This document shows positions 1 through 25,352 of a DNA stretch of 25,352 bases, piece by piece. The notes beneath the pieces were generated by a model that saw nothing but the letters and a program-made list of their open reading frames with translations, searched no databases and had not been told where the DNA came from. Numbering within the stretch: the first letter of the stretch is position 1; every line of letters starts with the position of its first letter. A program made the translations under genes and the position numbers. The DNA comes from a bacterium. GTDB lineage: Bacteria; UBP15; UBA6099; DSWB01. The DNA is taken from positions 1-25,352 of the forward strand of contig JAGUYV010000065.1 in NCBI GenBank assembly GCA_020061125.1, written 5' to 3'.

Positions 1-1
1 G

Positions 2-901
2 ACCGCGCAGGCCGCGGCGCAGCTCGGTCTGCGGCCCGGCATGCCCGTGTTCGGTGGCGGCGGCGACACCACCTGCATCACCCTGGGCGCGGGCTGCACA
101 GGACTGAACGACATCCATATCTATGTCGGCACCTCGGGCTGGCTGATCTGCAACACGGACAGGCGCATGGTGGATGTTTCTCACATGATCGCATCCATCC
201 TCGGCGCCATCCCGGGCCGGTACTGTTTCGTGGGCGAGCAGGACACATCGGGAGTGTGCCTCCAGTGGGTCAAGGACCACCTCGCGCTCGATGAAATCGG
301 CGTGTACCTCAAGGAACGCGAGAGCCGGGACCAGGAGCAGGACACGGCGCATTTGTATGCGTTGCTGAACAGCACAGTGGAGCAGGCGCCCGCAGGTTCC
401 GGCGGCGTGATATTCACGCCGTGGCTGCACGGCAACCGCGCGCCCGCGCAGGACCCCTACGCGCGCGCCATGTTCTTCAATATGGGGCTGAACACGGGCA
501 AACGCATGCTGGTGCGCGCGGTGCTCGAAGGCGTGGCGTTCCACAAGCGTTGGATCCTCGAATTCATGGAAAAGCGCGTGCCGCGCCAGCAGAAACTGCG
601 CTTCGCGGGCGGCGGCGCCAAGTCCGATGCGTGGTGCCGGATTATGGCGGATGTCACGGGCCGCTCCATCGAGGCTGTGGAAAACCCGCAGGACGCGGGC
701 GCCATGGGCGCCGCGCTCATCTCGGCCACTGGCCTGGGCCTCATCTCGAACATCGAGCAATCGGGCGCGTTGATTCCCGTTCACAAAACCTACGAACCGG
801 ATCCCGCGCACCGCGAAATTTACGACAAACACTACGCCGTTTTCAAGAACCTCTACGGCGCGAACAGAAAATTCTTCCGCGCGTTGAACGCGGAGCATTA
901 G
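2..901 (+). CDS. FGGY-family carbohydrate kinase (xylulokinase-like), C-terminal part; 5' end outside window
   Basis: The reading frame is open from base 2 to a TAG at 899-901, giving about 299 residues of the C-terminal half of an FGGY sugar kinase. These cytoplasmic enzymes phosphorylate a sugar or polyol with ATP. A GGGGDT segment at fragment residues 18-23 and an AGGGAKSD segment at about 202-209, followed by an NPQDAGAMGAAL stretch, match the nucleotide-binding C-terminal FGGY domain. Xylulokinase-like proteins are the closest type I recognise, but the substrate-binding N-terminal half is missing, so the sugar cannot be named. The first ATG, at base 41, lies inside the conserved fold and is not the true start. 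A TetR regulator follows 32 bases downstream and may be co-transcribed. Family call firm; substrate unknown. Confidence 0.88.
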   Translation, partial: TAQAAAQLGLRPGMPVFGGGGDTTCITLGAGCTGLNDIHIYVGTSGWLICNTDRRMVDVSHMIASILGAIPGRYCFVGEQDTSGVCLQWVKDHLALDEIGVYLKERESRDQEQDTAHLYALLNSTVEQAPAGSGGVIFTPWLHGNRAPAQDPYARAMFFNMGLNTGKRMLVRAVLEGVAFHKRWILEFMEKRVPRQQKLRFAGGGAKSDAWCRIMADVTGRSIEAVENPQDAGAMGAALISATGLGLISNIEQSGALIPVHKTYEPDPAHREIYDKHYAVFKNLYGANRKFFRALNAEH

Positions 902-933
902 GCGGATTCATTAGATACGCCGGTCACGGTTCC

Positions 934-1509
934 ATGAAGAACAGCAGGGAAAAAATTCTTAAAGCCGCGGTTGCCGTGTTCTCCCGGCGCGGATTTCACC
1001 AGGCCCAGGTCGAGGAGATCGCGAAAAAAGCGGGCGTGGGCAAGGGCACCATCTATCTGTACTTCCCCAACAAGGCCATGCTGTTTTCCGCCGCGGTGAG
1101 CGAGGGTCTTGAAGAAATCATGGCCGCGCTTCAGTCCGAGCTGCAATCGGATGTGCCATTCACCGAGCATTTCCACATTCTCATCCGAACGAGCGTGACT
1201 TTGTATCTCAAACACGGCGACCTGTCCAAAATCCTGATCAACGAACTCACCAGCGGCATTGGCCCCGCGGCCATGAAAGAAATTGAGGCTGTGCGCGAGC
1301 GGTTCATCGGATTTATCGCCGGGGTGCTCGAGCAGGGAAGCCGGGACGGATACATCAAGCCCATGGATTTTCGCCTCGCGGCCGCCGGCATCGTGGGTCT
1401 GATGGACAGCCTGTGCCGCTTCCATTTCCAGAGCCGGGGCGCCGTGGACAGCGCGCAGATCGCGGAAACCATGCACGCAATCCTGTCCAACGGCCTGCTC
1501 GCGAAGTGA
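934..1509 (+). CDS. TetR/AcrR-family transcriptional regulator
   Basis: This is a 191-residue protein, the usual length for TetR repressors. The N-terminal helix-turn-helix is clear: an ILKAAVAVFSRRGF helix at about residues 8-21, then VEEIAKKAGVGKGTIYLYFPNK at about 26-47, whose GTIYLYF core is the family's recognition helix. The remaining ~140 residues form the helical ligand-binding/dimerisation part, which is not diagnostic of a ligand. The ATG at 934 was chosen because it puts the HTH at the normal distance from the N-terminus; no strong Shine-Dalgarno precedes it, which fits translation coupled to the kinase gene just upstream. Its targets could include itself, the sugar kinase region, or the acylase gene that starts 110 bases downstream; this is inferred from position only. 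Confidence 0.92.
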   Translation: MKNSREKILKAAVAVFSRRGFHQAQVEEIAKKAGVGKGTIYLYFPNKAMLFSAAVSEGLEEIMAALQSELQSDVPFTEHFHILIRTSVTLYLKHGDLSKILINELTSGIGPAAMKEIEAVRERFIGFIAGVLEQGSRDGYIKPMDFRLAAAGIVGLMDSLCRFHFQSRGAVDSAQIAETMHAILSNGLLAK

Positions 1510-1531
1510 GCGGCCGCCGCCCGCGCGCAGC

Positions 1532-1560
1532 TTTACCCGTTTCCGCCGCCCTGTTACAAT
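1532..1560 (+). promoter_or_regulatory. Predicted extended -10 sigma-70 promoter for the acylase gene
   Basis: TTTACC at 1532-1537 (4 of 6 to TTGACA) is separated by 17 bases from TACAAT at 1555-1560 (5 of 6 to TATAAT). TG at 1552-1553 gives the extended -10 form TGnTACAAT. Transcription would start near 1567, about 50 bases before the ATG at 1620. It lies in the only gap between the TetR gene and the acylase gene, so it is also a natural place for a repressor site, although I see no clear palindrome. Confidence 0.55.
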
Positions 1561-1619
1561 TCCCCTTTGCGGTTTTCAATTCATCCGCAACAAACATTTT
1601 GATACTGGAGTTATTGGGA

Positions 1620-3977
1620 ATGTCTCGAACGCTGATGCTCATGCTGCTCTTTCTATCCGCCGCCGCGCCCCTTGCGGCGCAGGAAACCGTGTCCCTGCCG
1701 GGCCTCACGAATCCGGTGACTGTGCGCTACGACTCCTATGGCGTTCCGTCCATTGAAGCATCGAGCCTGCACGACCTTGTGTATGCCCAGGGATGGGTTC
1801 ACGCGCGGGACCGGCTGTGGCAGATGGATTTGAACCGGCGGCGCAGCACGGGGCGCATGGCGGAGCTGTTCGGCAAAGGGTCCGTGGGCGGCGATTTCCA
1901 TGTCCACATCGCGGGGCTGCCCGAAGTGTCGGAAAAAATCTGGGAGCAGTGCCTTCCCGAGGAGTGCGACAGCTATCAGGCGTACGCCGACGGCGTGAAC
2001 GCATTCATCGCCGCGATGAAAGAGCCGCCCGAGGAATACGCCCGCATAAAGGCGTCGCCCGAACCGTGGTCGCCCATGGACTCCGTGGCCATCGGCCGAG
2101 GCATGTCCTGGGGCCTGTCAAGCGATCTGGGACTGGAAATCATGCTCGGCGTGCTTGCCAAAAAACTGGGCGTGTCCATGCTCATGGACCTGCTTCCCAT
2201 TGACGGCGTGGATCCCATCACCATCATGGACGGCGGCGCGGCGTCGAGTTTTTCCGCGGAGCAATTCGACGAGGGCGTGCTTGCGGCGCTGGACGAACCC
2301 GTGTTCACCACCGGGCGCACGAACTTCGGTCCCGGCGTGGGCAGCAACAACTGGGTGGTGAGCGGCGCGCGCGCCGCCAATGGATTTCCTTTGCTTTCCA
2401 GCGACACCCACATGGGCCTGCCGCAGCCCTGCGACTGGTACGAAGTCCACCTCAAAGCGCCCGGCCTTCATGTGGCGGGACTGTCCGTACCCGGCGCGCC
2501 CGGCATCCTCATCGGCCACAATGAGCGCATCGCCTGGGGCGTAACCCAGGCCCGCTTTGATGTCAGCGACGCCTATATTGAAAAACTCGATCCGGAACGG
2601 CCCGGCACGCACTACTTGCACAAAGAACAGAGTTTGCCGTTCGAGGTCCGGAACATCCCCATCAAATATAAAACCGATGCCGGCACCGAAGTAGAAGAGA
2701 GAACCATCCGCTATACGGTTCACGGCCCGGTGGTTTATGAAGCCGATTCGCCGCAATCCGTGATCGCATACCGCTGGACCGGGCACGAGCCCACGCACGA
2801 GGGCGCGGCGTTTTTCGGATTCATGACCGCCTCAAACCTTTCCGAATTCAAGACCGCGCTCGACCTGTTCGAAGTGGGCGCGCAGAATTTCGTGTACGCG
2901 GATGTGGACGGAAACATCTATTACAGGAGCCAGGGCAAGGTTCCGTTGCGCAAAGGCAAACCCTTTCTGCCCCTGGACGGCTCGTCCGGCGAATATGAAT
3001 GGAACGGGTACATTCCTTACGGCGAACTGCCGCATGCGGAAAATCCGGCCGCCGGTTTTGTGGCCACGGCCAACAACAGGCAGGCCGGCAAAAACTATCC
3101 CTATTATCTGGGCGCAATTTTCGACAAGGGTTACCGCGCCCGCCGCATCTCGGAAATGATCCTCGCACTCGACAAAGTGTCTTTCAAGGACATGCAGGCC
3201 ATACAGAACGATGTGTACTCCCTGGCGGCCAAGAACCTGCTGCCGGTTCTTTATGCGGCCGCGGAAAAGCACCCGGACCTGCTGGACGCAAAAGGCAGCG
3301 CCGCCATCAAGGCGCTAAAGGAATGGAATCTGATAGAAACCCAGAACTCCATCGCGGCCACGGTCTTCTATGTCTGGCTCAAGCACTGTACCATCAACAT
3401 TTTCAAGGACAATGTGCCCGAGGAAGTGTTCCGGGAAATGGGGCGCACCGAGGTCGTGTACCCCACGATTCTGCGCAAGAAGAATCCCGTGATTGACATC
3501 TACGACAACGCGGCCACGCCCGATGTGCGCGAAACAAAGGCCATGATTCTTGTGCAGAGCATCAACCAGGCGGCCGAAGATCTGGAGGCGCGGTTCGGAG
3601 CGGACATGTCGCAATGGACCTGGGGCAAGCTGCACCAGGTGCGGCTGGGCCATCAACTCGGCGGCGAGTTCAGCGTGGGACCGGAGTCTGCGCCCGGCGG
3701 GTCCGACACCGTGAATGTGGCGGATTTCGGTCTTCTTGGCGATGATTTCAATTTCGGACACGGACCAAACATGCGATTCACCGTGGAACTTGCGCCCGGC
3801 GCCGTACGCGGGGAAAATGTGATCGCCGGGGGCCAGTCCGGAAATCGGTTGAGCGAAAACTATGCGGACCAGTTTCCCATGTGGCTCAAGGGGCTGGCGC
3901 GGCCCATGCATTTTCATGAAAAAGAGGTGGGCGCCAACACCGCCGCCGCAATTCTTCTGCAGCCCGTGAAGCAATAG
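1620..3977 (+). CDS. Penicillin acylase-family (Ntn-hydrolase) amidase, exported
   Basis: This 785-residue protein has a signal peptide (hydrophobic residues about 5-17, cleavage near LAA|QE at 20-21). In this family a precursor self-cleaves into alpha and beta chains, and the beta-chain N-terminal Ser attacks amide bonds of penicillins, acyl-homoserine lactones or related compounds in the periplasm. Ser242 in a GVGSNNWVVSG motif is the predicted cleavage site and nucleophile. GHNERIAWGVT (about 299-309) and VATANN (481-486) match the usual active-site surroundings. Length and order fit the family. The ATG at 1620 was chosen because GGAG (1607-1610) sits 9 bases upstream and the signal peptide begins there; the open frame further upstream overlaps the TetR gene. 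The substrate cannot be read from sequence. Confidence 0.93.
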   Translation: MSRTLMLMLLFLSAAAPLAAQETVSLPGLTNPVTVRYDSYGVPSIEASSLHDLVYAQGWVHARDRLWQMDLNRRRSTGRMAELFGKGSVGGDFHVHIAGLPEVSEKIWEQCLPEECDSYQAYADGVNAFIAAMKEPPEEYARIKASPEPWSPMDSVAIGRGMSWGLSSDLGLEIMLGVLAKKLGVSMLMDLLPIDGVDPITIMDGGAASSFSAEQFDEGVLAALDEPVFTTGRTNFGPGVGSNNWVVSGARAANGFPLLSSDTHMGLPQPCDWYEVHLKAPGLHVAGLSVPGAPGILIGHNERIAWGVTQARFDVSDAYIEKLDPERPGTHYLHKEQSLPFEVRNIPIKYKTDAGTEVEERTIRYTVHGPVVYEADSPQSVIAYRWTGHEPTHEGAAFFGFMTASNLSEFKTALDLFEVGAQNFVYADVDGNIYYRSQGKVPLRKGKPFLPLDGSSGEYEWNGYIPYGELPHAENPAAGFVATANNRQAGKNYPYYLGAIFDKGYRARRISEMILALDKVSFKDMQAIQNDVYSLAAKNLLPVLYAAAEKHPDLLDAKGSAAIKALKEWNLIETQNSIAATVFYVWLKHCTINIFKDNVPEEVFREMGRTEVVYPTILRKKNPVIDIYDNAATPDVRETKAMILVQSINQAAEDLEARFGADMSQWTWGKLHQVRLGHQLGGEFSVGPESAPGGSDTVNVADFGLLGDDFNFGHGPNMRFTVELAPGAVRGENVIAGGQSGNRLSENYADQFPMWLKGLARPMHFHEKEVGANTAAAILLQPVKQ

Positions 3978-4005
3978 CGCCCACGCCGCGCGCTCCGATA
4001 TTCTG

Positions 4006-4031
4006 GAAACCGTGCGGGTTTCGCTTAATAT
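4006..4031 (+). promoter_or_regulatory. Inverted repeat plus AT-rich -10-like element upstream of the histidine kinase
   Basis: GAAACC (4006-4011) and GGTTTC (4017-4022) form a perfect 6-base inverted repeat with a 5-base loop. It is followed directly by CGCTTAATAT (4022-4031), which contains a -10-like TAATAT. No U-tract follows, so it is not a convincing terminator for the acylase gene. A similar arrangement lies upstream of the first PilT gene (6153-6179). It could be a promoter with an operator-like palindrome. No good -35 is visible. Confidence 0.3.
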
Positions 4032-4093
4032 CTAATGTGGAAATTTCACGCGCAACTCCTTCCGGAAAACCGGGAGTGAACAGTTGCGATGCA

Positions 4094-5404
4094 ATGGCGG
4101 CGTACGCAATGGATGACGCGCAAAACAATCAAGAGAACGGCAAAGCGTCCCCTTCCCGCGGACAGGAAGCATCATTCATGCGCGAGCGCATCCGTTATTT
4201 GGAACTCATGCTGCATGAGGAAACCGCCCGGCGCGAGCGCGCCGACGCCGCGGTGCGCGAGAGCGAAAGTGATTTCCGCACGCTTTTCAACAATGTGCCC
4301 GTGGGCCTGTACCGCAACACGCCAGGCGACAGGGGCAAATTCATCATGGCCAATCCCGCCATCATCGCCATGTTCGGCTTCGAATCCGAAAGCGAATTTC
4401 TTGCCACCAGCGTGGCCGACATCTACGCCAACCCCGACAAGCGCAAGCAGTTTTCCGCAAAGCTGTCCGCCACGGGCCGCGTGATCGAGGAACCGCTCAA
4501 GCTGCGCAAAAAGAACGGAGAGCTGTTCTGGGGCGCGGTCACGGCCAACGCCGTGCGCGACGAACACGGCGCCATCAGATTCTTCGACGGCATCATCGAG
4601 GACATCACCGAACGCGTGCGCGCCCGCGAAGAATTGGACCGTTACAAAGCCAACCTCGAACAGGCCGTGTTCGAGCGCACCGCGGAACTCATGCGCGCAA
4701 ACCGCGAACTGCAATCCGAAATCGCGGAACGCAAACGAATGCAACAACGGCTCGGCGAGCTGTCCGAGAGCATCATCAGCCTCCAGGAGCAGGAACGCGC
4801 CAATTTGTCCCGCGAACTGCACGACGAACTCGGGCAGCAGCTCACGGCCCTTCGCCTGGAATTCGACGCCATGAAGAAACAGGCGCCGGAACTCGCCGCG
4901 CGCGGTTTCGCCGAATCTCTATCAGGAATGGTCGAGCGCATCACCGAGGAACTGCGCCGCATCTGCAAGGGCCTGCGCCCGTCGGTGCTGGACGACCTCG
5001 GCCTGTGCGCGGCGATCGGCGCGCTGACCCGCGATGTGGAGAACCGCACAGGCCTGGCCCTGGAGGTGGACCTCGCGCCCATTTCCGGAAGCAGCGTGCC
5101 GCCCCAGGTGGCCATCCATGTGTACCGCGTGCTGCAGGAATCTCTGAACAACATCGTCAAACACGCGCATGCGGACCGGGCCGCCGTGCGCCTCGAACAG
5201 CACGGAGAAAAACTCGTGCTCACGGTGGAGGACAACGGTCGGGGCATGGACGAGGCGCACGCCGAATCCGGCGGGTTCGGCATCATCGGCATGGCGCGCC
5301 GCGCCGAACTGTGCCACGGCCGCATCGCCCTGGAACCGAACACGCCGCACGGCGTGCGCGTGACGCTCGAAGTTCCGCTGAACACGAATTCCGCGCCCGC
5401 GTGA
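4094..5404 (+). CDS. Cytoplasmic PAS-domain sensor histidine kinase (NarL/DegS-type, HisKA_3)
   Basis: From the ATG at 4094 this is 436 residues. In order: a short coiled-coil-like N-terminus; a PAS domain at about 59-178 starting SDFRTLFNNVPVG and ending in the PAC-like FFDGIIEDITERV; a coiled-coil linker; a HisKA_3 dimerisation domain with phospho-acceptor His243 in LSRELHDELGQQ; and a HATPase_c domain with N-box LQESLNNIVKHAHA and G-box DNGRGMD. No membrane segment is seen, so it senses a cytoplasmic signal or bound cofactor. The partner is surely the response regulator 28 bases downstream. The start is uncertain: an in-frame GTG at 4037 and an ATG at 4109 are possible, and the only Shine-Dalgarno-like GGGAG (4072-4076) is 17 bases from 4094. 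Confidence 0.92.
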   Translation: MAAYAMDDAQNNQENGKASPSRGQEASFMRERIRYLELMLHEETARRERADAAVRESESDFRTLFNNVPVGLYRNTPGDRGKFIMANPAIIAMFGFESESEFLATSVADIYANPDKRKQFSAKLSATGRVIEEPLKLRKKNGELFWGAVTANAVRDEHGAIRFFDGIIEDITERVRAREELDRYKANLEQAVFERTAELMRANRELQSEIAERKRMQQRLGELSESIISLQEQERANLSRELHDELGQQLTALRLEFDAMKKQAPELAARGFAESLSGMVERITEELRRICKGLRPSVLDDLGLCAAIGALTRDVENRTGLALEVDLAPISGSSVPPQVAIHVYRVLQESLNNIVKHAHADRAAVRLEQHGEKLVLTVEDNGRGMDEAHAESGGFGIIGMARRAELCHGRIALEPNTPHGVRVTLEVPLNTNSAPA

Positions 5405-5432
5405 CACCACCGCGCGAAAGGACACGCATCAG

Positions 5433-6071: not shown

Positions 6072-6141
6072 AACGCCTCATGGATTCTTCACGCGCCACT
6101 GCCGTTTCGTTCGCATCTGCACCGCGGCCCGCGTTTCGCTT

Positions 6142-6179
6142 GCGGGGTTCCCGCAAAACCGGGGTTTGCGCTAAAATAT
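6142..6179 (+). promoter_or_regulatory. Paired inverted repeats and -10-like element upstream of the first pilT-like gene
   Basis: The 176-base gap 6072-6247 holds two adjacent short hairpin candidates. GCGGG (6142-6146)/CCCGC (6150-6154) may belong to the end of the response-regulator transcript. GCAAA (6153-6157)/TTTGC (6165-6169) contains AAACC-GG-GGTTT. This is followed by GCGCTAAAATAT, with a -10-like TAAAAT at 6172-6177. The second part resembles the element at 4006-4031. No U-run follows, so a terminator is not supported. I see nothing else in this gap. Confidence 0.3.
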
Positions 6180-6247
6180 GCAATTGTTGGATCAGTGCGC
6201 ACGCAACCACACAGAGGATCCGTGAATAGCCGTCAAGGTGAAAGACA

Positions 6248-7321
6248 TTGAGTGAAGAAGCCAGACAACGATTGAACGGGCTGCTGAAAATGATGGTGGA
6301 GCGCGGGGGATCGGACCTGCACTTCAAGGCCAACAGCCCGGTGTACATCCGCGTGAACGGCAAGCTGCACCCCATAGATTCGCACCCCTACCCCCCGCAG
6401 CTCATCACGCAGATGGCCCTGTCCATCATGAACCCGCGCCAGCAGAAGGATTACGCCGAAACCAACGAATGCGACATGTCTTACAGCCTGCCCGGCGTGT
6501 CCCGGTTCCGCGTGAATGTATTCCGCCAGAGTTCCTTTACGGGCGCGGTGTTCCGCACGATTCCGCTCAAAATCCAGACCATCGCGGAACTGGGCATGCC
6601 GCAGATCCTCACCAAACTCGCGGACCGGCCAAAAGGCCTCATTCTCGTAACAGGCCCCACGGGCAGCGGCAAGTCCACCACACTGGCCGCCATGATTGAC
6701 CACATCAACAACACGCGCCGCGAGCACATTCTCACCATCGAGGACCCCATCGAGTTTCTGCACCGGGACAAAAGCTGCACAATCTGCCAGCGCGAGGTGG
6801 GGCAGGATACGCGCTCGTTCGCCCGCGCCCTCAAGAGCGCACTGCGCGAGGACCCCGATGTCATCCTCGTGGGCGAGCTGCGAAACCTCGAAACCATTTC
6901 CATGGCCATCACCACCGCGGAAACCGGCCACCTGGTCTTCGCAACCCTGCACACCACGGGCGCCGTGGCCACCATTGACCGCATCATTGATGTGTTCCCG
7001 CCACAGCAGCAGCAGCAGATCCGCATGCAACTTTCCGTGACGCTGCAAAGCGTGATCTCGCAGACCCTGGTGCCCCTGGCCTCGGGCCGCGGCCGCGTGT
7101 GCGCCCACGAGATCATGGTCATCACCCCCGCCATCTCCAGCCTCATCCGCGAGAACAAGGTCTTCATGATCCACCAGATCGTTCAGGCCGGCAAGGAAAT
7201 GGGCATGCACACTCTGGACCAGCACCTGCTGGAACTGTACCGCAAACGCCAGATCAAACTCGAAGACGCCATGTCCAAATGCCAGTTCCCGGTGGAGTTC
7301 CAGTCGCAGTTGAAACGCTGA
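6248..7321 (+). CDS. Type IV pilus retraction ATPase, PilT family (first of a tandem pair)
   Basis: This 357-residue protein is a hexameric cytoplasmic ATPase of the PilT family, which depolymerises type IV pili. An N-terminal PAS-like half (about 1-110) with SDLHFKANSPVYIRVNGKL is followed by the RecA-like half. Visible there are Walker A GPTGSGKST at 136-144, the Asp box TIEDPIEFLH, Walker B VILVGELRNLETI, and the His box TGHLVFATLHTTGA. AHEIMVITPAISSLIRE near the C-terminus corresponds to the PilT AIRNLIRE-type retraction motif. The start is TTG: AAGGTG at 6235-6240 sits 7 bases upstream, and the resulting N-terminus matches the family; the next ATG (6290) would cut into the conserved N-terminus. 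A second paralogue follows 20 bases downstream. Confidence 0.94.
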   Translation: MSEEARQRLNGLLKMMVERGGSDLHFKANSPVYIRVNGKLHPIDSHPYPPQLITQMALSIMNPRQQKDYAETNECDMSYSLPGVSRFRVNVFRQSSFTGAVFRTIPLKIQTIAELGMPQILTKLADRPKGLILVTGPTGSGKSTTLAAMIDHINNTRREHILTIEDPIEFLHRDKSCTICQREVGQDTRSFARALKSALREDPDVILVGELRNLETISMAITTAETGHLVFATLHTTGAVATIDRIIDVFPPQQQQQIRMQLSVTLQSVISQTLVPLASGRGRVCAHEIMVITPAISSLIRENKVFMIHQIVQAGKEMGMHTLDQHLLELYRKRQIKLEDAMSKCQFPVEFQSQLKR

Positions 7322-7341
7322 AAACGAGGATTGACCCTGTC

Positions 7342-8451
7342 ATGCACATACACGAACTGCTCGATCACATGCTGAACGCGGACGCCTCGGACCTTCATCT
7401 CAAGGTCGGGAACCAGCCCCTGGTGCGCGTGCATGGCGAAATCAAGGCCCTTGACATGCCGCGCCTCACCCCAGCGGAAACCAAGCAGCTTATCTTCAGC
7501 GTGCTCAACCCCGAGCAGCAGAAAGAATACATTGACGAATGGGAAGTGGACCTGGCTTATGCTTATGAGGACAAGGCCCGGTTCCGCGTCAACGCCTTCC
7601 ATCAGCGCGGCACCATGGCCGCGGTGTTCCGCGTCATTCCCATGCGCATCCGCAGCATGCAGGAGTTGAGTCTCCCGCCCATCATCAAAGAATTCTGCGA
7701 CCGCCCCCGCGGCCTCATCCTGGTCACAGGCCCCACAGGCAGCGGAAAGTCCACCACCCTCGCCTCCATGGTGGATTACATCAACGCCTCGCGCGACGAG
7801 CACATCATCACCATCGAGGACCCGGTCGAGTTCGTGCACGGCAACAAGCGCAGCCTCGTGAACCAGCGCGAAGTGGGCCGCGACACACAGTCCTTCATCA
7901 ACGCTCTCAAAAGCGCCCTGCGCCAGGACCCCGATGTGGTGCTCATCGGCGAAATGCGCGACCTCGAAACCATCGGCACGGCCCTGACCACCGCGGAAAC
8001 CGGCCACCTCGTGCTCGCCACCCTGCACACCACGGGCGCGGCCCAGACCATTGACCGCATCATTGATGTGTTCCCCCCGGAGCAGCAACCCCAGGTGCGC
8101 ATGCAGATGTCCATGAACATCCAGGGCATCGTGTCCCAGACCCTGCTGCGCCGCGCCGACGGCCGCGGCCGCATCGCCGCCTTCGACATCATGGTCCCCA
8201 CGCCCGCCATGCGAAACCTCATCCGCGACGGCAAGACCCATCAGATCCCCGCCACCATGCAGACCAGCAAAAGCGTGGGCATGTGCACTCTGGAGCAGTC
8301 CCTGGCCGAACTCGTGAAAAAGCGGCTCATCACCAAGGAAGTCGCCTTGCACAAGGCCATGGACCCGGACGCCCTGTCGGAACTCCTTGGACTGCCAAAA
8401 GGACCTGGCATGGGCGGCATGCCGCAACAGTCCCAGCGGCCCGGCATGTAA
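7342..8451 (+). CDS. Type IV pilus retraction ATPase, PilT/PilU family (second of a tandem pair)
   Basis: This 369-residue paralogue of the upstream gene starts MHIHELLDHMLNADASDLHLKVG, a typical PilT N-terminus. Walker A GPTGSGKST lies at 130-138, the Asp box IEDPVEFVH and Walker B VVLIGEMRDLETI follow, then the His box TGHLVLATLHTTGA and a C-terminal AMRNLIRDGK retraction-type motif. All catalytic elements are present. The C-terminus carries a short Gly/Pro/Met/Gln-rich tail (GPGMGGMPQQSQRPGM) absent from the first copy. GAGGA at 7326-7330 precedes the ATG by 11 bases. The two copies could correspond to the PilT/PilU pairing known in other bacteria, but which is which cannot be told. No pilB, pilC or pilin gene is in the window. 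Confidence 0.94.
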   Translation: MHIHELLDHMLNADASDLHLKVGNQPLVRVHGEIKALDMPRLTPAETKQLIFSVLNPEQQKEYIDEWEVDLAYAYEDKARFRVNAFHQRGTMAAVFRVIPMRIRSMQELSLPPIIKEFCDRPRGLILVTGPTGSGKSTTLASMVDYINASRDEHIITIEDPVEFVHGNKRSLVNQREVGRDTQSFINALKSALRQDPDVVLIGEMRDLETIGTALTTAETGHLVLATLHTTGAAQTIDRIIDVFPPEQQPQVRMQMSMNIQGIVSQTLLRRADGRGRIAAFDIMVPTPAMRNLIRDGKTHQIPATMQTSKSVGMCTLEQSLAELVKKRLITKEVALHKAMDPDALSELLGLPKGPGMGGMPQQSQRPGM

Positions 8452-8485
8452 TAGGCCGCTGCCACCAGACACAAAGGACATCATC

Positions 8486-9270: not shown

Positions 9271-10212
<942 letters not shown>

Positions 10213-15411: not shown

Positions 15412-16416
<1,005 letters not shown>

Positions 16417-16431
16417 TGTGCGAATGCGCGC

Positions 16432-17473: not shown

Positions 17474-20400
17474 ATGCGCCGTCTGCTATTTCCGACAATT
17501 CTGCTGTTCATGTTATGTTGCGCCGCTCCCGCGCGGGCCGCGTCGCTGGCCATGCGCGCGGATCCGGCGAACCTGTCCGCGGATCAGGATGCAACAGTCA
17601 CGATCACCATTTCCCTGACGGATGGCAGGGGCAAACCCCTCGCCGGCAAAAAGATTTTCGTATCGGCTTCGCGAGGCACGGTTTCTGGAATCAAAGACAT
17701 GGGACAGGGCCGGTATCAGGCGGCCATAGAGGTGCCCGCACAACCCGCGCCCCGCAGACCAGATTATCTGCTGGTCATGGCGTCGGCGCTTCTGGACAAC
17801 GAAGCGCCCGCCGCGGGTCTGGCCGTGCCGGTTTCCTCGAATCTTGTGTTGCAGGGAAACGCCGCGCCCGGCGTGTCCATGCGCGCATCGGCCGCAGGCC
17901 GAAATCTGGGAGAACCTGTCACCGCGGGCACGGACGGCAAGTTCCGGCTGGTTGCGCCCGTGCCGCCCGGCGTGGCTTCGGTCACCGTCACGGCCACGCG
18001 AGGGGGTAGTTCCAGAACCAGCACGGTAAGCGTGGACACCGGCAATTTGACCCGGCATCTGACGCAGGCGGTTCCGGACAAACTCGTACCGGGCGGCGCG
18101 CAGGGATTTTTAAATGTGTTCGCGGTGCAGGCAACAGGAAACGCGGAATCCGCGAACCGTTTCACAATCGTGTCCGACGCCAGCAGTCACGCCACGGGAC
18201 TCACAGTTCTGGGCGGCGGCGTGTTTCAGTCCCGCGTGAGCCTGGAACCGCAGGCGCGCGCTCCGGCGGAAATCGTCGTGGAATACGCCGGTGCAAGCCG
18301 CTCCGTGTTATTTTCAATTGCTGAACAGGGATTGGCCGCCATTGCTCTCGAATCATCCGTCACCCAGGCCTACCCGGGCCAGGCCGTTGCGCTCTCACTG
18401 ACAGCCTATGATTTCGCGGAACTGCCCGCGCCCGGCGCAATCATCACAATGTTCGTGGACGGCGCAACCGCAGGCCAGGCTTCGGAGCGCGGCGCTGGCG
18501 CGTATTCATTCGATTTCTCACTGGACCCCGGCGATACGCGCCGCGACATAGCCATCTACGCCCTCGGATACGACCCGGCGTTTCCAGACACGGAAGCGCG
18601 CTCCCCGGAACTTCGCATTGCGATTCTCGAACCGGACATCAAGCTGACCGCGGAAGCAACGGAACCGCGGCTGGATGCGGGGCGCACGGCTGCGGTGCGC
18701 GTGCGCGCGGAATCCCGGACACAACGCGAGGGAGTGGAAGGCATTGCTCTACAGGTGCATGCGGAAACCGGGAGCGCCGGTCCGGTGCGAGACATAGGCG
18801 GCGGTGCTTATGAATTCGAATACACCGCGCCCAATGAGTTCGAAGGCCGCTCCATCAGCATCGCAATCCGTGCGCCGGACGCAGCGGGCGCGCCGCAGGC
18901 TGGCGTTGCTTTTGAATGGCTCGGTCCCGGCGCTCCGTTCGGAGAAGCGCGGCAGATGGAGATCACCGCTTCCGCGGCCACGGTTCCGGCGGGCGGTTCG
19001 GTCACGCTCACGGCGCGCCTCACGGATGCGGCCGGGCGCGGCGTTCCAGGCAGAACCGTGGCGTTCAGTTCCGATGCGGGCATTCCGGGCGCGGTCACGG
19101 ACAATGGTGACGGCTCCTATTCCGCGCAACTCGCCATGCCCGGAGTAGCGCCTTCGGGCGCGTTCGGCGTGCGCGCGGCATGCGATTGCGGCGGCGCGGC
19201 CCTGTCCGCTCAAACAACCCTGACCGTGCCTCCCAAGCCGCCCGCCACAATCTCCATGACCGCGGACCATGAAACGGTTCATGTGTCCAGCGCCGCAAGC
19301 ACAATCGTTCGTGTTCTGGTAACGGACAACAGCGGACAGGCCGCAGCGGATCAGGCCGTGACCCTAACGGTGTCCCAATCTGGCACAATCCAGACGCAAA
19401 CCCTCACCACGGACAGCAGCGGACAGGCCGCCGGGGAGATCGAACTGACGCCCGCGGCCGGACAGACTGTGGTCACTGGGTCCCTGTCCAGTAACCCATC
19501 CATTTCCGCATCCCTTACGATACAGAAAATCAAATACGCGGTGTCGCGCCTGGAACTCACGGCCCTGCCGCAGAGCATTCCCGCCAACGGGGCCGCAACC
19601 CTGGACATCGAGGCTTACGCCATTGACGAGACCGGAACGCACGCCGCGGGAGAACGCATCGAATTCCGGCTGAACTCCGGCTCCGGAAGACTCAATTCCA
19701 CAAACTGCACAACCGGCGGCGATGGCCGCTGCACTGTGCAGTACACCTCGGGCCTGGCCTGCGGAACCGTGTCCGTACAAGCGTACGCATACTCCGAAGA
19801 CACAGTGCGGCAAAACGCGGATGCGCAGGAAATGCCTGCTGTGCCGGCATCCCTGGAACTGAACAATCAGATTCCGGCACAGATTACCGCCAACGGCGCC
19901 GAGCAATGGACCATGCGCGTTCTGGCTTTGGATTCGGGGCAGTGCCCTGTTGCCGGCGAAACCCTGAATCTTTCCATGCAGGGCGGCAGCGGGAGCGTGG
20001 CGGCCCAGGCAGTGACCGATGCGCTCGGCGAAGCCGCAGCCCTTTACACCGCGGGGCTTGTTCCCGGAGACGCCACAATCCTTGCGCGGTCCCGCACCGC
20101 GCCGCTCGTTGCTCTTTCAACAACGCTCACGCTCCTGCCGTGGCAGCCCTCTTCCTACGATGTGTCCGTGTCCACGCAATCACCCGCAGCGGGCGTTCCG
20201 TTCACAGTCACCGTGACCGCGCGCGACTACTTCGGCGATGTCATGACGGAATGGGACGCCTCGGACCTGGCGTATTCAATGTCCGGCCCGTCGAACGCGC
20301 CCGATGGGACTCCGCCTTCTCTTCCCGCGGCAGCTTCCATTCTGTCCTCTTTCAGCAATGGTTCCGCAGTGTTTAACGTCACGCTTTTCAAGGCGGAAAC

Positions 20401-22477
20401 CACGATACTGCGATTCACGGATGGAAAAGTGACAGCGGAATCGCCGGGCGTCACGGTTGCGGGTGCGGCGGCTGTTTCATTTGACGCATCCGCAAACCCG
20501 GCCCAGACTGCGGGCGCACAGTTTTTGATGCAGGTTACGGCCAGGGATGTTTATGGAAATGTCGCAACCTACGATCCGTCCGGAAAAACCTTTACTTTAA
20601 GCGGCGCGGCCGCATCCCCGGACGGATTCGCGCCATCGTACCCGTCAAGCGCGGCCACGGCTGCGTCGTTCAGTTCCAGCACAGCCGCCCTTCCTGTCAC
20701 GCTGTTCAAAGCGGAAACCGCATCGTTGTCAATCAGCGACGGTTCCATTACCGGGACCACGGGTGCAATCACGGTCGCGCGCGTGCAGGCATCATTGATA
20801 ACAGTGGTCCAGAACAATAACCAGTCTCAAATCATCACGCAGTCTCTCGCCCAGAACCCCGTGGTTAGGGTTTCTGACGCGTACGGCAATCCCGTGGCGG
20901 GCGCGGCCGTATCGTTCGCAGTCACGGGCGGAGGCGGTTCTGCAATAGGACTGTCCCAGACCACGGACGCCTCGGGACTTGCCGCCCCCGGTTCCTGGAC
21001 CATGGGTCCAACCATTGGCGCAAATACAATGACCGCCACATTCACCCAGGACGCGGGCGGTTCCGTGACCATAAACGCCAGCGCCTTCGTGCCTTCGCCC
21101 AATGCCGTCATAACACTGGAATCCCACACAAACTACATCTGTCCAAACGACACGGTGGACCTCACGGGCGAAAATTCCACGGCGTCGGCTGTGTCTTCAC
21201 TCACGGCGTATTCCTGGAATTTCAGCAACGCTCTGGGAGGCGCATCCACCACGGACGCCAATCCCGGTCTCCTGCAGTACACGGCCACGGCAACGGTCCC
21301 GGTCACGCTCACGGTTACGGATAACTTTTCACAGACAGATTCCGAAACCTATTATGTGTATGTGGATTTTCCGCCCAGCCCCTTTACGCTATCCGCAAGC
21401 CCCGCGACCATCACTGCGGACGGCGTGTCCGAAACCACGATCACATCGTCCACAATTTACGGCTGCGGACAGGCCATAGTGGCTGACGGAACCCTGTTCA
21501 CCGTGGCGCCGTCCCTGGGCGCCGTCACTTCCCCTGACCAGAGCGGCCTTGGCGGTGTGCAGAGGCAAACCACAGGAGGCGTCATCCAGTTCACAGTGCG
21601 TTCCGGAACCGAGATTGGCACTTCGGTGGTTGTGGCGCAAAGTGTGGAATTCTCCTCATTGAATGCGTACACGCCCGTAACATTCACCGGTCCTGACACA
21701 GTACGGCCATTTGTGGCATCACATTCCCCGTCAGGAGGCAATGTTACCGGTCTCGTGAATCAGATTTCCATTGTCTTCAGCGAAGATGTGAACATAGCGC
21801 CGGACGACATCCGGGTCAAGAGAAACGGGTCCACCGTGAGCGGCGTCTGGAATTACACAAACGGCAATTATACCGCAGTATTCACTCCGGACTCCCCCAT
21901 CAACGCGGACGGGGCAACGATTGATGTAACAGTGCGCGACACAATCGCCGACCTTGCGGGCAACAGGCTCGACGGCCAGCAGACAGGAGCCAACAGCGAA
22001 TACGAATTCTCGTTCGGCGGTGAAATTTCATCAACGCCTCCAGTGATTGGCTCGTGCAACGCCGCTCCCGCCACATTCTCCCCGGACCCAACGGATGGAC
22101 TGCCCAACTCGTCTCACATCGCCATCCCCGTGACGGATGATGCTTACATCAAATACTGGCGCGCGGACATTCTTTCCGGCGGCGCCACGCTTCGGTCATA
22201 TGTGCAATACAATGCGTGTTCTTGCGGTAATCTGTGCGCATCCAACACCATAGCGTGCGGCAACTGCTGCTCCAACAATGCCGCGCCTCCCGGCTGCTGC
22301 ACAAGCTCGGCAGGAGATGTGGAATGGGACGGCAAAAACGCAAGCGGGGATTTCGTGGCCAACGGCGTGTATGATTACCGTGTCACGGCTTATGATCTCG
22401 AATCCAACGCAAGCGCCGCGTGCGACGCACAGGTCACGGTAAGCAATCCCATAGATTTCGGCGGGTTCGGTCCATGA
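17474..22477 (+). CDS. Giant exported multi-Ig-domain surface protein (adhesin/invasin-like)
   Basis: This protein is 1667 residues. A Sec signal peptide ends at ARA|AS (residue 22), so the protein leaves the cytoplasm. The rest is a chain of beta-sandwich modules. Big_1/invasin-like units lie near 24-110, 495-590, 593-684, 692-785, 793-893 and 1107-1209, with less clear units between. A duplicated ~100-residue module lies at 896-995 and 1004-1101. A PKD-like domain follows at about 1210-1300, another Ig-like unit at 1302-1410, a Big_5-like unit at 1411-1518, and a FlgD-type Ig at 1524-1660 (WDGKNASGDFVANGVYDYRV) holding a Cys-rich insert. No LPXTG, SLH, PEP-CTERM or autotransporter barrel is seen, so attachment must come from partners. 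ATG 17474 is chosen for AAGGGA 5 bases upstream and the signal peptide; TTG at 17450 is an upstream in-frame alternative. Its stop overlaps the next gene (ATGA). Adhesion is inferred from architecture only. Confidence 0.9.
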   Translation: MRRLLFPTILLFMLCCAAPARAASLAMRADPANLSADQDATVTITISLTDGRGKPLAGKKIFVSASRGTVSGIKDMGQGRYQAAIEVPAQPAPRRPDYLLVMASALLDNEAPAAGLAVPVSSNLVLQGNAAPGVSMRASAAGRNLGEPVTAGTDGKFRLVAPVPPGVASVTVTATRGGSSRTSTVSVDTGNLTRHLTQAVPDKLVPGGAQGFLNVFAVQATGNAESANRFTIVSDASSHATGLTVLGGGVFQSRVSLEPQARAPAEIVVEYAGASRSVLFSIAEQGLAAIALESSVTQAYPGQAVALSLTAYDFAELPAPGAIITMFVDGATAGQASERGAGAYSFDFSLDPGDTRRDIAIYALGYDPAFPDTEARSPELRIAILEPDIKLTAEATEPRLDAGRTAAVRVRAESRTQREGVEGIALQVHAETGSAGPVRDIGGGAYEFEYTAPNEFEGRSISIAIRAPDAAGAPQAGVAFEWLGPGAPFGEARQMEITASAATVPAGGSVTLTARLTDAAGRGVPGRTVAFSSDAGIPGAVTDNGDGSYSAQLAMPGVAPSGAFGVRAACDCGGAALSAQTTLTVPPKPPATISMTADHETVHVSSAASTIVRVLVTDNSGQAAADQAVTLTVSQSGTIQTQTLTTDSSGQAAGEIELTPAAGQTVVTGSLSSNPSISASLTIQKIKYAVSRLELTALPQSIPANGAATLDIEAYAIDETGTHAAGERIEFRLNSGSGRLNSTNCTTGGDGRCTVQYTSGLACGTVSVQAYAYSEDTVRQNADAQEMPAVPASLELNNQIPAQITANGAEQWTMRVLALDSGQCPVAGETLNLSMQGGSGSVAAQAVTDALGEAAALYTAGLVPGDATILARSRTAPLVALSTTLTLLPWQPSSYDVSVSTQSPAAGVPFTVTVTARDYFGDVMTEWDASDLAYSMSGPSNAPDGTPPSLPAAASILSSFSNGSAVFNVTLFKAETTILRFTDGKVTAESPGVTVAGAAAVSFDASANPAQTAGAQFLMQVTARDVYGNVATYDPSGKTFTLSGAAASPDGFAPSYPSSAATAASFSSSTAALPVTLFKAETASLSISDGSITGTTGAITVARVQASLITVVQNNNQSQIITQSLAQNPVVRVSDAYGNPVAGAAVSFAVTGGGGSAIGLSQTTDASGLAAPGSWTMGPTIGANTMTATFTQDAGGSVTINASAFVPSPNAVITLESHTNYICPNDTVDLTGENSTASAVSSLTAYSWNFSNALGGASTTDANPGLLQYTATATVPVTLTVTDNFSQTDSETYYVYVDFPPSPFTLSASPATITADGVSETTITSSTIYGCGQAIVADGTLFTVAPSLGAVTSPDQSGLGGVQRQTTGGVIQFTVRSGTEIGTSVVVAQSVEFSSLNAYTPVTFTGPDTVRPFVASHSPSGGNVTGLVNQISIVFSEDVNIAPDDIRVKRNGSTVSGVWNYTNGNYTAVFTPDSPINADGATIDVTVRDTIADLAGNRLDGQQTGANSEYEFSFGGEISSTPPVIGSCNAAPATFSPDPTDGLPNSSHIAIPVTDDAYIKYWRADILSGGATLRSYVQYNACSCGNLCASNTIACGNCCSNNAAPPGCCTSSAGDVEWDGKNASGDFVANGVYDYRVTAYDLESNASAACDAQVTVSNPIDFGGFGP
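20159..20776 (+). repeat. Tandem duplicated ~100-residue module inside the giant Ig-like protein
   Basis: Two adjacent units, 20159-20458 and 20483-20776, encode modules that align along their length. Shared blocks in the same order are VTARD-(Y/V)-(F/Y)-G-(D/N)-V, SG..-(A/S)-PDG-..-P-S-.-P, and the exact octapeptide VTLFKAET (20378-20401 and 20696-20719, 318 bases apart). By eye identity is around 40% in protein and visibly lower in DNA, so the duplication is old and not a recent repeat array. Confidence 0.75.
22217..22300 (+). other. Cys-rich insert (8 Cys in 28 residues) in the C-terminal FlgD-type Ig domain
   Basis: Residues 1582-1609 of the giant protein contain eight Cys in the order C-x-C-x3-C-x6-C-x2-CC-x8-CC. 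The insert sits between the first half of a FlgD-like Ig fold (YWRADILSGGATLRSY) and its WDGKNASGD hairpin. The rest of the protein has few Cys. It may be a disulfide-knotted cap or a metal-binding knuckle; neither can be decided from sequence. Confidence 0.7.
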
Positions 22478-24252
22478 CGCTGCACGCCCGGAGGTGTTGC
22501 TTTTTGATCACAGCTATGGACTCCGCATCCACACGATGCATTCGTGCCGCAGCCTGCCTATTTATTACTCTATCGGCTGCACTCATGTGCGCCCTGCCCT
22601 GCATGGCCGGAACAACGCCCAATGCGCAACCCGAAATATTCTGCGAGTTTTCTTCGAACCGCGCGCCCATTGACAGGGACAGCGTGCGAATCGAGGTGGA
22701 CGGCCGCGACGTCACACGGGACGCGATAGTCCAACCCTGGCGCGTGAGCTACACGCCCGCCGCCCCGCTTGCGCTGGGCCGCCACTTTGTGCGCGTCACT
22801 GTCAGGGATCTCGAAGGCGCTCAAGGCGTCAAGCAATGGGAATTCACCGTGGATCCAGCGGCGCACGAAACGCAACCCGCAACCATGGCCTTTGCTCCGC
22901 CCACCCCGGCTAACGGCGCCGTGCTCACGCATGGAGACGGTATTGTCATCGCAGCAAAAACAGAAACGCCCGGCTCCGCTCCGTCCCGGAATCCGAATCT
23001 CAAACTGTTTCGCAACGGAGTCCCAGTATCCGCGCCCGAACCCGGATCATGGTCGTATCACGGCGACGGCTTCTCTGTCAGTCTGCCTGCTCTGCCCCCC
23101 GGCCGTTACGCCGCGGTTTTGTCCGCGCCCGGCGCGGAGCGCGAAATTTCCACGGCGTTCGTGGTGGCGCCGGATCCGCCGCGCATTGCATCCTTTTCCG
23201 TGGAGCCGTCGCGGATTTCCGCGAGCGGCGGCCTGACGGCGGTTTTGTTCATTGAAGATGAGTCGGGCGCAGGCGCGGACTCGTGTGTTCTGTCCTTTTC
23301 CCGCAATGGCCGTTCCGTGTCCGTGAAAACCGTGCGCGCCGCGGCGGGCGCCAACCTGCTCATGATGCAAGCATCAAGCATCGAGCCATCGCCTGCAGGA
23401 ACTTACCAGGCCACGATACAATGCACGGACGCCGCGGGCCGCGCCACCAACCAGGCAGTACCCGTTGCATTCACCATCGAAGCCGCACCCTCGCAGCTCG
23501 CGGCGATAGATGCCCCGGCCTCGCGAGGCGGCACGGCCCTGTTCATGGATCGCCTGTCCGCACAGGTTGCGGTTTCACACATTGACATCACAGGCAAAGC
23601 GCCCCCCAATTCGAACCTTGCCCTTTTCGTGAACGGCGCGCGAGCGCTCGAACGCACAGCGGACACATGGGGCGCATTCCGCTTCACAAGCGTCCCGCTC
23701 GACCCCGGAGATAATACCATCTTCGTGGCCGTCGAGGATTCCGCAGGCCTGTCTTACATAGAATCGAACCGCGTGCAAGTCGCATATATTGAACCGGAAA
23801 CCGCTGTCGCGCATTTGCCCGAGCCGGACATGCCTCCCGCCGTGGAACCCGAACCTGGTCCTGCCACGGATATCAATCCAGTAACGCCGGAACCTGTGAT
23901 TCCGGATCCGGTTCCCGTTCCCGGAACACCGGACGAGCCGGAGCCGGTCGAACAGCAAGAGCCGGCTCCTGTTCTGGTTGAACTGACCGTTCATGTGCCG
24001 CCCGGCGCGTCGCACGGAAATAATGTGCCCGTGCGCGTGAGCGCGCCCCCGGGCGCTTCTGTGTCGTTGTATGTGAACGGCGTCCTCACCGCCACGGCAT
24101 CCGCGAACATCGGAGGCCAGGCGCATTTCAGCGAACTGGACTTTGACTCCGGAGACAATGAACTGTACGCCTCCGCCATTATTGACGGCGCGGAAATCCG
24201 CAGTCCCGCAGTCACGGTGCATGTGCAACCGCATTCACGGGGGAATCCATGA
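22474..24252 (+). CDS. Exported Ig-like protein with Pro/Glu-rich linker
   Basis: From the ATG at 22474 this is 592 residues. A hydrophobic signal (AAACLFITLSAALMCALPCMA) is followed by several Ig-like beta domains with a VRVTVRD-type strand, two short NGVPV/NGARALE-type units, a Pro/Glu-rich linker of about 64 residues (440-503) and a last Ig-like domain (YVNGVLTATASANIGG). The linker could span periplasm or wall. Start choice is open. ATG 22474 overlaps the giant gene's stop (ATGA) but has no ribosome site. TTG 22504 has GGAGG (22490-22494) 9 bases upstream. ATG 22516 gives the most ordinary signal peptide. No known family recognised beyond Ig-like folds. The stop overlaps the next gene by 4 bases, so all three are translated together. 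Confidence 0.82.
   Translation: MTLHARRCCFLITAMDSASTRCIRAAACLFITLSAALMCALPCMAGTTPNAQPEIFCEFSSNRAPIDRDSVRIEVDGRDVTRDAIVQPWRVSYTPAAPLALGRHFVRVTVRDLEGAQGVKQWEFTVDPAAHETQPATMAFAPPTPANGAVLTHGDGIVIAAKTETPGSAPSRNPNLKLFRNGVPVSAPEPGSWSYHGDGFSVSLPALPPGRYAAVLSAPGAEREISTAFVVAPDPPRIASFSVEPSRISASGGLTAVLFIEDESGAGADSCVLSFSRNGRSVSVKTVRAAAGANLLMMQASSIEPSPAGTYQATIQCTDAAGRATNQAVPVAFTIEAAPSQLAAIDAPASRGGTALFMDRLSAQVAVSHIDITGKAPPNSNLALFVNGARALERTADTWGAFRFTSVPLDPGDNTIFVAVEDSAGLSYIESNRVQVAYIEPETAVAHLPEPDMPPAVEPEPGPATDINPVTPEPVIPDPVPVPGTPDEPEPVEQQEPAPVLVELTVHVPPGASHGNNVPVRVSAPPGASVSLYVNGVLTATASANIGGQAHFSELDFDSGDNELYASAIIDGAEIRSPAVTVHVQPHSRGNP
22490..22494 (+). promoter_or_regulatory. Shine-Dalgarno GGAGG inside the start region of the second surface gene
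   Basis: GGAGG lies 16 bases into the frame that begins at ATG 22474 and 9 bases before an in-frame TTG at 22504. Its position argues that the true start is TTG 22504 (or ATG 22516, 21 bases away) and not the ATGA overlap. TTG is used elsewhere in the window (6248). This is the only strong ribosome site near this junction. Confidence 0.5.
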
Positions 24253-25352
24253 AGCGGCTCCTCTGCCTCTCCATCGCCGTGATGATTGTGGCCAATGCGC
24301 ACCTCGCCGCTCCGCAGGTGGAGTTTCCGCTGCCGGAATCGCACTGGTCATACAGCGCAATGGCCGCGCTTGCGGCCGCGGGCCTGGCCCCCGGTTTCGA
24401 ATATGCGGACTTTGACGGCCGCCGCACTTTCACACGCGAAGACATGGCCCGAGCCGCCGCAGCGGCTCGCGATTTCTTCTCCACCTCTCCTTCTTTATTT
24501 TCTTCAAACCATCTGGAACTGCTCGACAGGCTTCAGAACGAATTCAGGGACGAACTCGAACGCCTCGGCATCTACAGGCCCCTGCCCGCGACCGAATCAT
24601 CCCCCCCGGTTCCACCCGGACACTGGGCCTACGCCGCACTGGAAAAATTCGCGGCCGGAGGATTTTTTCCTGATACGCCCGCGCACCAATTCTCCGGCGG
24701 CAAAATTCTCACGCGTGCGGAAATGGCGGCTTTTGCCGCACAACTTCTGCAGCGCCGATCCTCGGACCCCTCGCTTTTCAATGATGAACAAGCGCGCATG
24801 TTGGACTATCTCGAAACCGAATTTCAAGCCGAGTTGCTAAACCGTGAATCAGTTCCCGCCATGGAGCAAAGCCGGGAACGCGCTGTTCCGCCCTTTGCCG
24901 TGTCCGGCACGGGCAATTTTTATGCAGGCGTCACAAAGGGCGACAAGGCTTCCATCACGGGCAGGCTCACCCTGGATGCGGACTCGCCCCGGATGGAAAC
25001 CTATTTCTCCGGAGATCTGGACAACGCGGAACGCTCCGGAACGGACCTGGATTTCGGCCGCGGATACACATTCCAGTTGAACCGCAAGCTCATCGGATAT
25101 CATTCGAATAAGAGTGATGCGGACAACGACCGCTATCTGCTGGCCGGAGACATCAACAGCATTGACTTTGACCGAGGCCTGATAGCCGGGGCCTTGAACA
25201 TAAAAGGCGTATTCGCATCATCCGGTTCTCCGGCGGCGCGCACCACAGCTTTGTGGGGGGAAGACACGGAAGGCAATGAAATCGCGGGCGCGCGATTCGT
25301 GCGCCGCATGGGAGACGACACGCGCATCGCCGCCGTGTGGCTGCGGGAATAC
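24249..25352 (+). CDS. SLH-domain outer-surface protein with beta-rich, barrel-like body; 3' end outside window
   Basis: The frame is open from ATG 24249 to the window end (368 residues, no stop). A signal peptide (about 1-17, cleavage near ANA|HL) is followed by two S-layer-homology-like repeats, at about 29-72 (SHWSYSAMAALAAAGL, TFTREDMARA) and 121-167 (GHWAYAALEKFAAGGFFP, LTRAEMAAFA). A helical stretch with many charged residues leads to a beta-rich region from about 215 on, with alternating strands (GNFYAGVTKG, SITGRLTLDA, YFSGDLDN, LLAGDINSIDF). SLH domains bind cell-wall polymers; followed by strands like these they resemble SLH-porin or barrel proteins of some Gram-negative groups. The ATG overlaps the preceding stop (ATGA), with GGGGGA 4 bases upstream. 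It probably anchors or displays the two upstream proteins (inference). Confidence 0.8.
   Translation, partial: MKRLLCLSIAVMIVANAHLAAPQVEFPLPESHWSYSAMAALAAAGLAPGFEYADFDGRRTFTREDMARAAAAARDFFSTSPSLFSSNHLELLDRLQNEFRDELERLGIYRPLPATESSPPVPPGHWAYAALEKFAAGGFFPDTPAHQFSGGKILTRAEMAAFAAQLLQRRSSDPSLFNDEQARMLDYLETEFQAELLNRESVPAMEQSRERAVPPFAVSGTGNFYAGVTKGDKASITGRLTLDADSPRMETYFSGDLDNAERSGTDLDFGRGYTFQLNRKLIGYHSNKSDADNDRYLLAGDINSIDFDRGLIAGALNIKGVFASSGSPAARTTALWGEDTEGNEIAGARFVRRMGDDTRIAAVWLREY

What the first reader, a model, noticed from the sequence alone, without database searches (positions are those of the whole stretch)
1..25352. Near-complete absence of the palindrome ACGT across the window
A hand scan of every CGT found ACGT only at 20376-20379 and 22709-22712. 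At about 60% GC, random expectation is roughly 90 (a rough base-composition estimate). The gap holds in all reading frames and in non-coding DNA. Asp-Val is written GAT-GTN almost everywhere (for example 2896, 3511, 5577, 6989, 8064) although GAC is otherwise common, and ACG codons are common but not followed by T. Other palindromes such as GTAC, GATC, TCGA and CATG are frequent. Such avoidance usually points to long exposure to a restriction system or to a mutagenic methylation at that site. Both exceptions lie in the surface-protein genes, which may be newer or more exchanged.
Basis: partly seen in the sequence, partly recalled or inferred. Interest (0 to 1): 0.7.

Follow-up and report, generated by a model that had tools for sequence, protein, structure and literature searches.

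The report
Genome stripped of five restriction sites
This uncultured bacterium, and viruses related to the ones in its genome, have lost almost every copy of at least five short DNA words that restriction enzymes are known to read, ACGT among them, which points to long pressure from several DNA-cutting defence systems; the cause is familiar, but the completeness and the number of sites are unusual.

Summary
It is genome-wide: 19 against 843 in 369 kb of the same genome, and 28 GACGTC in the whole genome against 628-1235 in the six other genomes of its phylum. CTSAG (0 in the window; genome ratio 0.007), RTCGAY (0; 0.055), GRGCYC (1; 0.051) and CAGCTG (0; 0.034) are purged too; CTAG is also low, and no other short word comes close. 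All five are known restriction-modification (R-M) specificities. Prophages of this genome and two related metagenomic phage contigs avoid the same words (ACGT only partly in the prophages). Codon choice shows that ACG before T did not become ACA, so mutation at methylated cytosines is not the main cause; selection against the sites fits. Best reading: long pressure from several Type II R-M systems on chromosome and phages. The ACGT enzyme was not identified. One complete R-M operon (C5 methylase, DUF4928 nuclease, Vsr) is present, but its relatives elsewhere sit in DNA with normal ACGT. A known phenomenon in an unusually deep, multi-site form.

The parts
1..25352 (.). Whole window: near-absence of ACGT, CTSAG, RTCGAY, GRGCYC, CAGCTG and CTAG
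   Evidence: Counts 2, 0, 0, 1, 0, 0 against 59.9, 40.4, 14.7, 25.6, 7.7, 8.2 expected
20376..20379 (.). Residual ACGT, context TTTAACGTCACG (Asn-Val junction, NAC|GTC)
22709..22712 (.). Residual ACGT, context GCGACGTCACAC (Asp-Val junction, inside a GACGTC)
2787..2792 (+). The only GRGCYC word of the window (GAGCCC)
17474..22477 (+). Large protein with Invasin_D3 and Big_1 domains, holds the first residual ACGT
   Evidence: Pfam
22420..24252 (+). Protein with a bacterial Ig-like domain (Big_13), holds the second residual ACGT
   Evidence: Pfam

Best explanation
The lineage has lived for a long time under several Type II restriction-modification systems whose sites include ACGT, CTSAG, RTCGAY, GRGCYC and probably CAGCTG. 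Under-methylated sites in the chromosome are now and then cut, and sites in entering phage DNA are cut efficiently, so variants without a site are favoured in both. Nearly all sites have been replaced by synonymous or neighbouring words. Shown here: the depletion, its genome-wide extent, its independence of codon phase, its absence from relatives for ACGT, CTSAG and RTCGAY, its presence in prophages and related phage contigs, and the lack of a deamination footprint at ACGT. Inferred: that restriction is the selecting force and that the systems are or were carried by this lineage. Not shown: which gene reads ACGT, or whether one is still present.
For: Genome sample of 369 kb: ACGT 19/843, CTSAG 4/591, RTCGAY 13/237, GRGCYC 22/434, CAGCTG 4/116. 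GACGTC 28 genome-wide against 628-1235 in six relatives. The set is discrete: with these words and CTAG set aside the lowest tetramer is CTAA at 0.30, and no gapped word stands out. All five are known R-M specificities: CTSAG (PMC10745947), RTCGAY (PMC12592239), ACGT, GRGCYC, CAGCTG (general knowledge: HpyCH4IV/MaeII, BanII, PvuII). Three prophage contigs: CTSAG 0/36.4, GRGCYC 1/26.0, RTCGAY 1/11.5. Two metagenomic phage contigs: ACGT 3/54.7, CTSAG 0/36.5, GRGCYC 0/22.1, RTCGAY 0/10.8; a distant phage from another source: ACGT 21/27.1, CTSAG 19/22.7, RTCGAY 15/11.0. ACG before T 4 of 1048 with no shift to ACA. Avoidance of orthodox Type II sites rises with time of residence and persists as traces of lost systems (PMC4687349).
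Against: No gene with ACGT specificity was identified; only one complete R-M operon was found, and its relatives elsewhere have normal ACGT. Fewer methylases than avoided sites, though a fifth of the genome is missing. Prophages keep a third of their ACGT (19/56). L215 and L219 may be prophages of a sister strain and not independent viruses. No methylation data.
Confidence: 0.8

Rival explanations
1. The operon on contig C128 (C5 cytosine methylase, DUF4928 nuclease, Vsr) is the ACGT system and has selected its own site away; the other sites have separate causes.
For: It is the only complete R-M operon and the only C5 methylase found. DUF4928 occurs only in this genome among the seven of the phylum, as does the ACGT depletion. 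The operon lies in the chromosome and its contig is itself poor in ACGT, 1/12.8.
Against: Plasmids with a 54-57% identical nuclease have ACGT 588/570, and four genomes with DUF4928 have ratios of 0.86-1.02. Recent acquisition there could explain it. CTSAG and RTCGAY are equally private to this genome and equally possible sites.
Confidence: 0.2
2. Mutation, not selection: a methylase made m5C at ACGT and deamination turned the sites into ATGT and ACAT.
For: ATGT/ACAT is the most enriched neighbour of ACGT in genes (1.43 against 1.15 in relatives). The four alignable ACGT sites of prophage C8 face ACAT or ATGT in L215.
Against: Thr before T: ACA rises by an odds factor of 2.34, less than the A-ending codons of Pro, Ala, Ser (3.2, 4.3, 3.5). 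Intergenic ATGT 0.82. Arg CGT after A is 1 of 548 although deamination there changes the residue. The ATGT excess in genes is forced by NAT|GT, the only synonym. CTSAG, RTCGAY, GRGCYC and CAGCTG are lost too.
Confidence: 0.07
3. The words were purged in the phages only because prophages sat long in a purging chromosome; restriction of incoming phage plays no part.
For: The prophages are integrated or assembled with the chromosome; L215 and L219 could be prophages of a sister strain.
Against: C8 keeps 9 of 30 ACGT but 0 of 16.5 CTSAG and 0 of 11.9 GRGCYC, so it is too recent for the ACGT purge yet already free of the others. None of the 588 differences between C8 and L215 touches a CTSAG, RTCGAY, GRGCYC or CAGCTG site, against 4.4, 3.5, 7.1 and 1.3 expected.
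Confidence: 0.15
4. Ordinary composition or codon bias.
For: CTAG and several TA-containing words are low in many bacteria, relatives included.
Against: Synonymous shuffling gives z = -10 in the window and about -33 in the genome sample; relatives do not share it for ACGT, CTSAG, RTCGAY.
Confidence: 0.01

Closest known systems
Avoidance of orthodox Type II R-M sites in prokaryotic genomes (Rusinov et al. 2015, PMC4687349, and work cited there)
   Same: Short palindromic R-M sites under-represented genome-wide; more sites avoided than systems present; traces of lost systems
   Different: Their threshold for avoidance is a ratio of 0.78; here five sites stand at 0.007-0.055 at once, by a different null model
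Recognition-site avoidance in phages (Rusinov et al. 2018, PMC6286503)
   Same: Phage contigs lack the words that the host lacks
   Different: That study finds avoidance stronger in non-temperate phages; here the sequences are prophages or close relatives of them
MTase-DUF4928-Vsr operons on Pseudomonas, Serratia and Burkholderia plasmids
   Same: Same gene order as contig C128; nuclease 54-57% and methylase 37-39% identical
   Different: Those plasmids do not lack ACGT; the operon here is chromosomal
ACGT-specific R-M systems (HpyCH4IV, MaeII, TaiI; from general knowledge)
   Same: Same word
   Different: No sequence of theirs was available to compare; kinship with any gene here is untested

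Membership tests
R-M site avoidance in a host genome | Word under-represented against a composition- and codon-aware null | tested here: met
R-M site avoidance in a host genome | The words are sites of orthodox Type II systems | tested here: met
   CTSAG and RTCGAY as methylase/R-M motifs in papers; ACGT, GRGCYC, CAGCTG from general knowledge
R-M site avoidance in a host genome | A cognate R-M system is or was in the lineage | tested here: inconclusive
   One R-M operon of unknown site; genome 79% complete
R-M site avoidance in a host genome | Loss by selection, spread over synonyms | tested here: met
   Thr codons before T, Arg after A
Mutagenic m5C methylation at ACGT | Excess of the C-to-T product where synonyms allow a choice | tested here: not met
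   No ACA excess before T; intergenic ATGT 0.82
ACGT-specific DUF4928 R-M system | Carriers of the system avoid ACGT | tested here: not met
   Plasmids 588/570, four genomes 0.86-1.02; recent acquisition could explain this
ACGT-specific DUF4928 R-M system | Methylase modifies ACGT | not testable with these tools
   No methylation data
Phage site avoidance | Phages of the host lack the same words | tested here: met
   partial for ACGT in the genome's own prophages

The most novel reading that the evidence does not exclude
The lineage has become nearly site-free for five or more restriction specificities, so that R-M genes, its own or its neighbours', can come and go without self-damage: a genome made restriction-proof by site loss and not by methylation, with its phages following.
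Probability: 0.12. Interest if true: 0.7.

Novelty: new member of a known kind. Interest (0 to 1): 0.45.

Why it matters
Avoided words are a readable record of which DNA-cutting defences an uncultured lineage has faced, and they can tie phage contigs to a host without CRISPR spacers. Near-complete loss of five sites at once is a clean natural case for asking how strong and how long self-restriction must act, and whether a site-free genome makes R-M genes freely exchangeable.

Tried and rejected
A bare ACGT pattern was too short for the genome search; GACGTC was used. DUF4928 as the ACGT enzyme: carriers elsewhere are not depleted. DUF4928 as a GRGCYC enzyme: several carrier plasmids lack GRGCYC, but two plasmids of the same backbone without DUF4928 lack it too (0/16.0 and 0/19.7), so it is a property of the backbone. 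The N6/N4 methylase on C172 as the ACGT cause: close homologues (57-59% identity) in five of the six relatives, of which G013 and G014, the two sampled, have an ACGT ratio near 0.85. Type I methylase family PF02384: none. Gapped and non-palindromic words: nothing comparable. Other ACGT-poor genomes (L007, L008, L014) as a guide to the enzyme: none carries DUF4928; their C5 methylases were not compared in detail. Contigs picked because they hold GACGTC were kept out of the main ratio, but are in the gene samples. The endolysin of prophage C259 found no relatives. A text search for ACGT under-representation in Helicobacter found nothing.

Full report
OBSERVATION. Base composition predicts 89.9, a second-order Markov model 59.2, and shuffling synonymous codons 56.6 (z = -10). 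Two hundred second-order simulations never gave fewer than 38.

GENOME. The window is contig C428 of a 4.12 Mb assembly of 513 contigs, 78.8% complete. In 369 kb taken without regard to ACGT (prophage contig C8 left out), ACGT is 19 against 843 expected (0.023). Of 50 sampled contigs besides the window 37 hold none (a few of these are masked in part). DNA outside called genes has 11 against 116. GACGTC occurs 28 times in the whole genome and 628-1235 times in each of the six other genomes of the phylum. Loci from the nearest named relatives (MAGs RA.bin91, ADurb.Bin236 and others) have ACGT ratios of 0.91-1.02, and larger samples of three genomes of the phylum 0.79-0.85.

MORE THAN ACGT. A scan of all palindromic words of 4-6 letters, with synonymous shuffling as the null, finds a discrete set: CTSAG 1/449, RTCGAY 12/528, CAGCTG 3/189, ACGT 46/1168, GRGCYC 31/624, then CTAG 11/90 (this gene sample includes contigs chosen for holding GACGTC, so its ACGT figure is slightly high). 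With these set aside the lowest tetramer is CTAA at 0.30, a TA-containing word, and no gapped word stands out. ACGT, CTSAG and RTCGAY are strongly depleted only in this genome among those compared; CAGCTG is low in all three relatives sampled, GRGCYC in G014, CTAG in two of three. In the window itself: CTSAG 0/40, RTCGAY 0/15, GRGCYC 1/26, CAGCTG 0/8. CTSAG is a predicted methylase site in many species, confirmed in several (PMC10745947), and RTCGAY is a site filtered for Bifidobacterium breve UCC2003 as a restriction site (PMC12592239). ACGT, GRGCYC and CAGCTG are the sites of HpyCH4IV/MaeII, BanII and PvuII (general knowledge). That the outliers are all R-M sites is strong, though indirect, evidence of the cause.

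PHAGES. Contigs C8, C78 and C259 carry phage head, tail or lysis genes. Pooled they have CTSAG 0/36.4, GRGCYC 1/26.0, RTCGAY 1/11.5, CAGCTG 1/7.3, but ACGT 19/56.3. Related contigs in IMG/VR, L215 (88-90% identical DNA to C8) and L219 (85% identical in one C78 protein), both from metagenome 3300007072, have CTSAG 0/36.5, GRGCYC 0/22.1, RTCGAY 0/10.8, CAGCTG 0/7.8 and ACGT 3/54.7. A distant phage from another source, L220, has CTSAG 19/22.7, RTCGAY 15/11.0 and ACGT 21/27.1, though it too lacks GRGCYC (0/6.4) and CAGCTG (0/3.7). L218 matches this genome's own C78 in length and at 100% protein identity. L215 and L219 may be prophages of a sister strain, so residence in the chromosome could account for part of this. 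But C8 keeps a third of its ACGT while lacking all CTSAG, which residence alone does not explain. The 588 differences between C8 and L215 never touch a CTSAG, RTCGAY, GRGCYC or CAGCTG site, where 4.4, 3.5, 7.1 and 1.3 would be expected if changes fell at random; ACGT is 6 against 9.5.

SELECTION OR MUTATION. If methylated ACGT decayed by deamination, ACG before T should have become ACA. It has not: before T, ACG falls to 4 of 1048, while the A-ending codon rises by an odds factor of 2.34, less than in Pro, Ala and Ser (3.2, 4.3, 3.5), where the G-ending codon rises 1.7-2.0. ATGT outside called genes is not in excess (0.82). Arg CGT after A is 1 of 548, although there deamination would change the residue. 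Loss spread over synonyms is what selection against the word predicts. The four alignable ACGT sites of C8 face ACAT or ATGT in L215, so transitions do occur there, as on any path to or from ACGT.

GENES. One C5 methylase was found, on C128, followed by a DUF4928 protein (a Type II restriction enzyme by PADLOC) and Vsr. GH3-like and HflX-like genes follow (my reading of the translations), and the 6.2 kb contig has ACGT 1/12.8, so it looks chromosomal and resident. DUF4928 is absent from the other six genomes of the phylum. The same operon sits on plasmids of Pseudomonas, Serratia and Burkholderia, but those plasmids and four genomes with DUF4928 have normal ACGT. Its site is therefore open. 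Other methylases: a Dam homologue (C38), an enzyme on C172 with close homologues in five of the six relatives, a methylase-like protein on C411, and two in prophages; PF02384 is absent. Fewer systems than sites is common, because systems are lost and the trace remains (PMC4687349), and a fifth of this genome is missing.

HOW IT MOST LIKELY WORKS. Occasional cutting of under-methylated chromosomal sites, and efficient cutting of entering phage DNA, favours variants without the site. To bring ACGT to 2% of expectation the pressure must have lasted long enough to saturate synonymous positions, or have been strong (inference). My estimates: restriction as the force about 0.8; several systems and not one, about 0.9 given that; identity of the ACGT enzyme unknown.

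NOVELTY. Site avoidance by hosts and phages is established (PMC4687349, PMC6286503). What is unusual is the depth (0.007-0.055) and the number of sites at once, in a sparsely sampled phylum, with the phages showing the same pattern.

Noticed in passing
own genome sample and window: YTCGAR is over-represented 2.2-fold while RTCGAY is nearly absent; relatives show neither.
   Followed up: partly
L007, L008 (Cardiobacteriaceae MAGs), L014 (Nitrospirae JdFR-88), L060 (Elusimicrobia UBA4817): Other genomes with strong ACGT depletion (ratios 0.06, 0.03, 0.13, 0.16), without DUF4928; L060 is poor in several palindromes.
   Followed up: partly
L003, L004, L150-L154 (relatives in the phylum): GATC is depleted (0.38-0.46) in these relatives but not in the window's genome.
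   Followed up: no
L096, L098, L216, L217 (plasmid backbones): One broad-host plasmid backbone lacks GRGCYC and CAGCTG and nearly lacks CTSAG, with or without the DUF4928 operon, but keeps ACGT and RTCGAY.
   Followed up: partly
L083:417-2871 and L085-L088: In the DUF4928 operon the nuclease is more conserved (54-57%) than its methylase (37-39%) between this genome and the plasmids; some plasmid copies lack Vsr.
   Followed up: no
window 6248-7321 and 7372-8451: Two different PilT-type ATPase genes in tandem (my reading of the translations).
   Followed up: no
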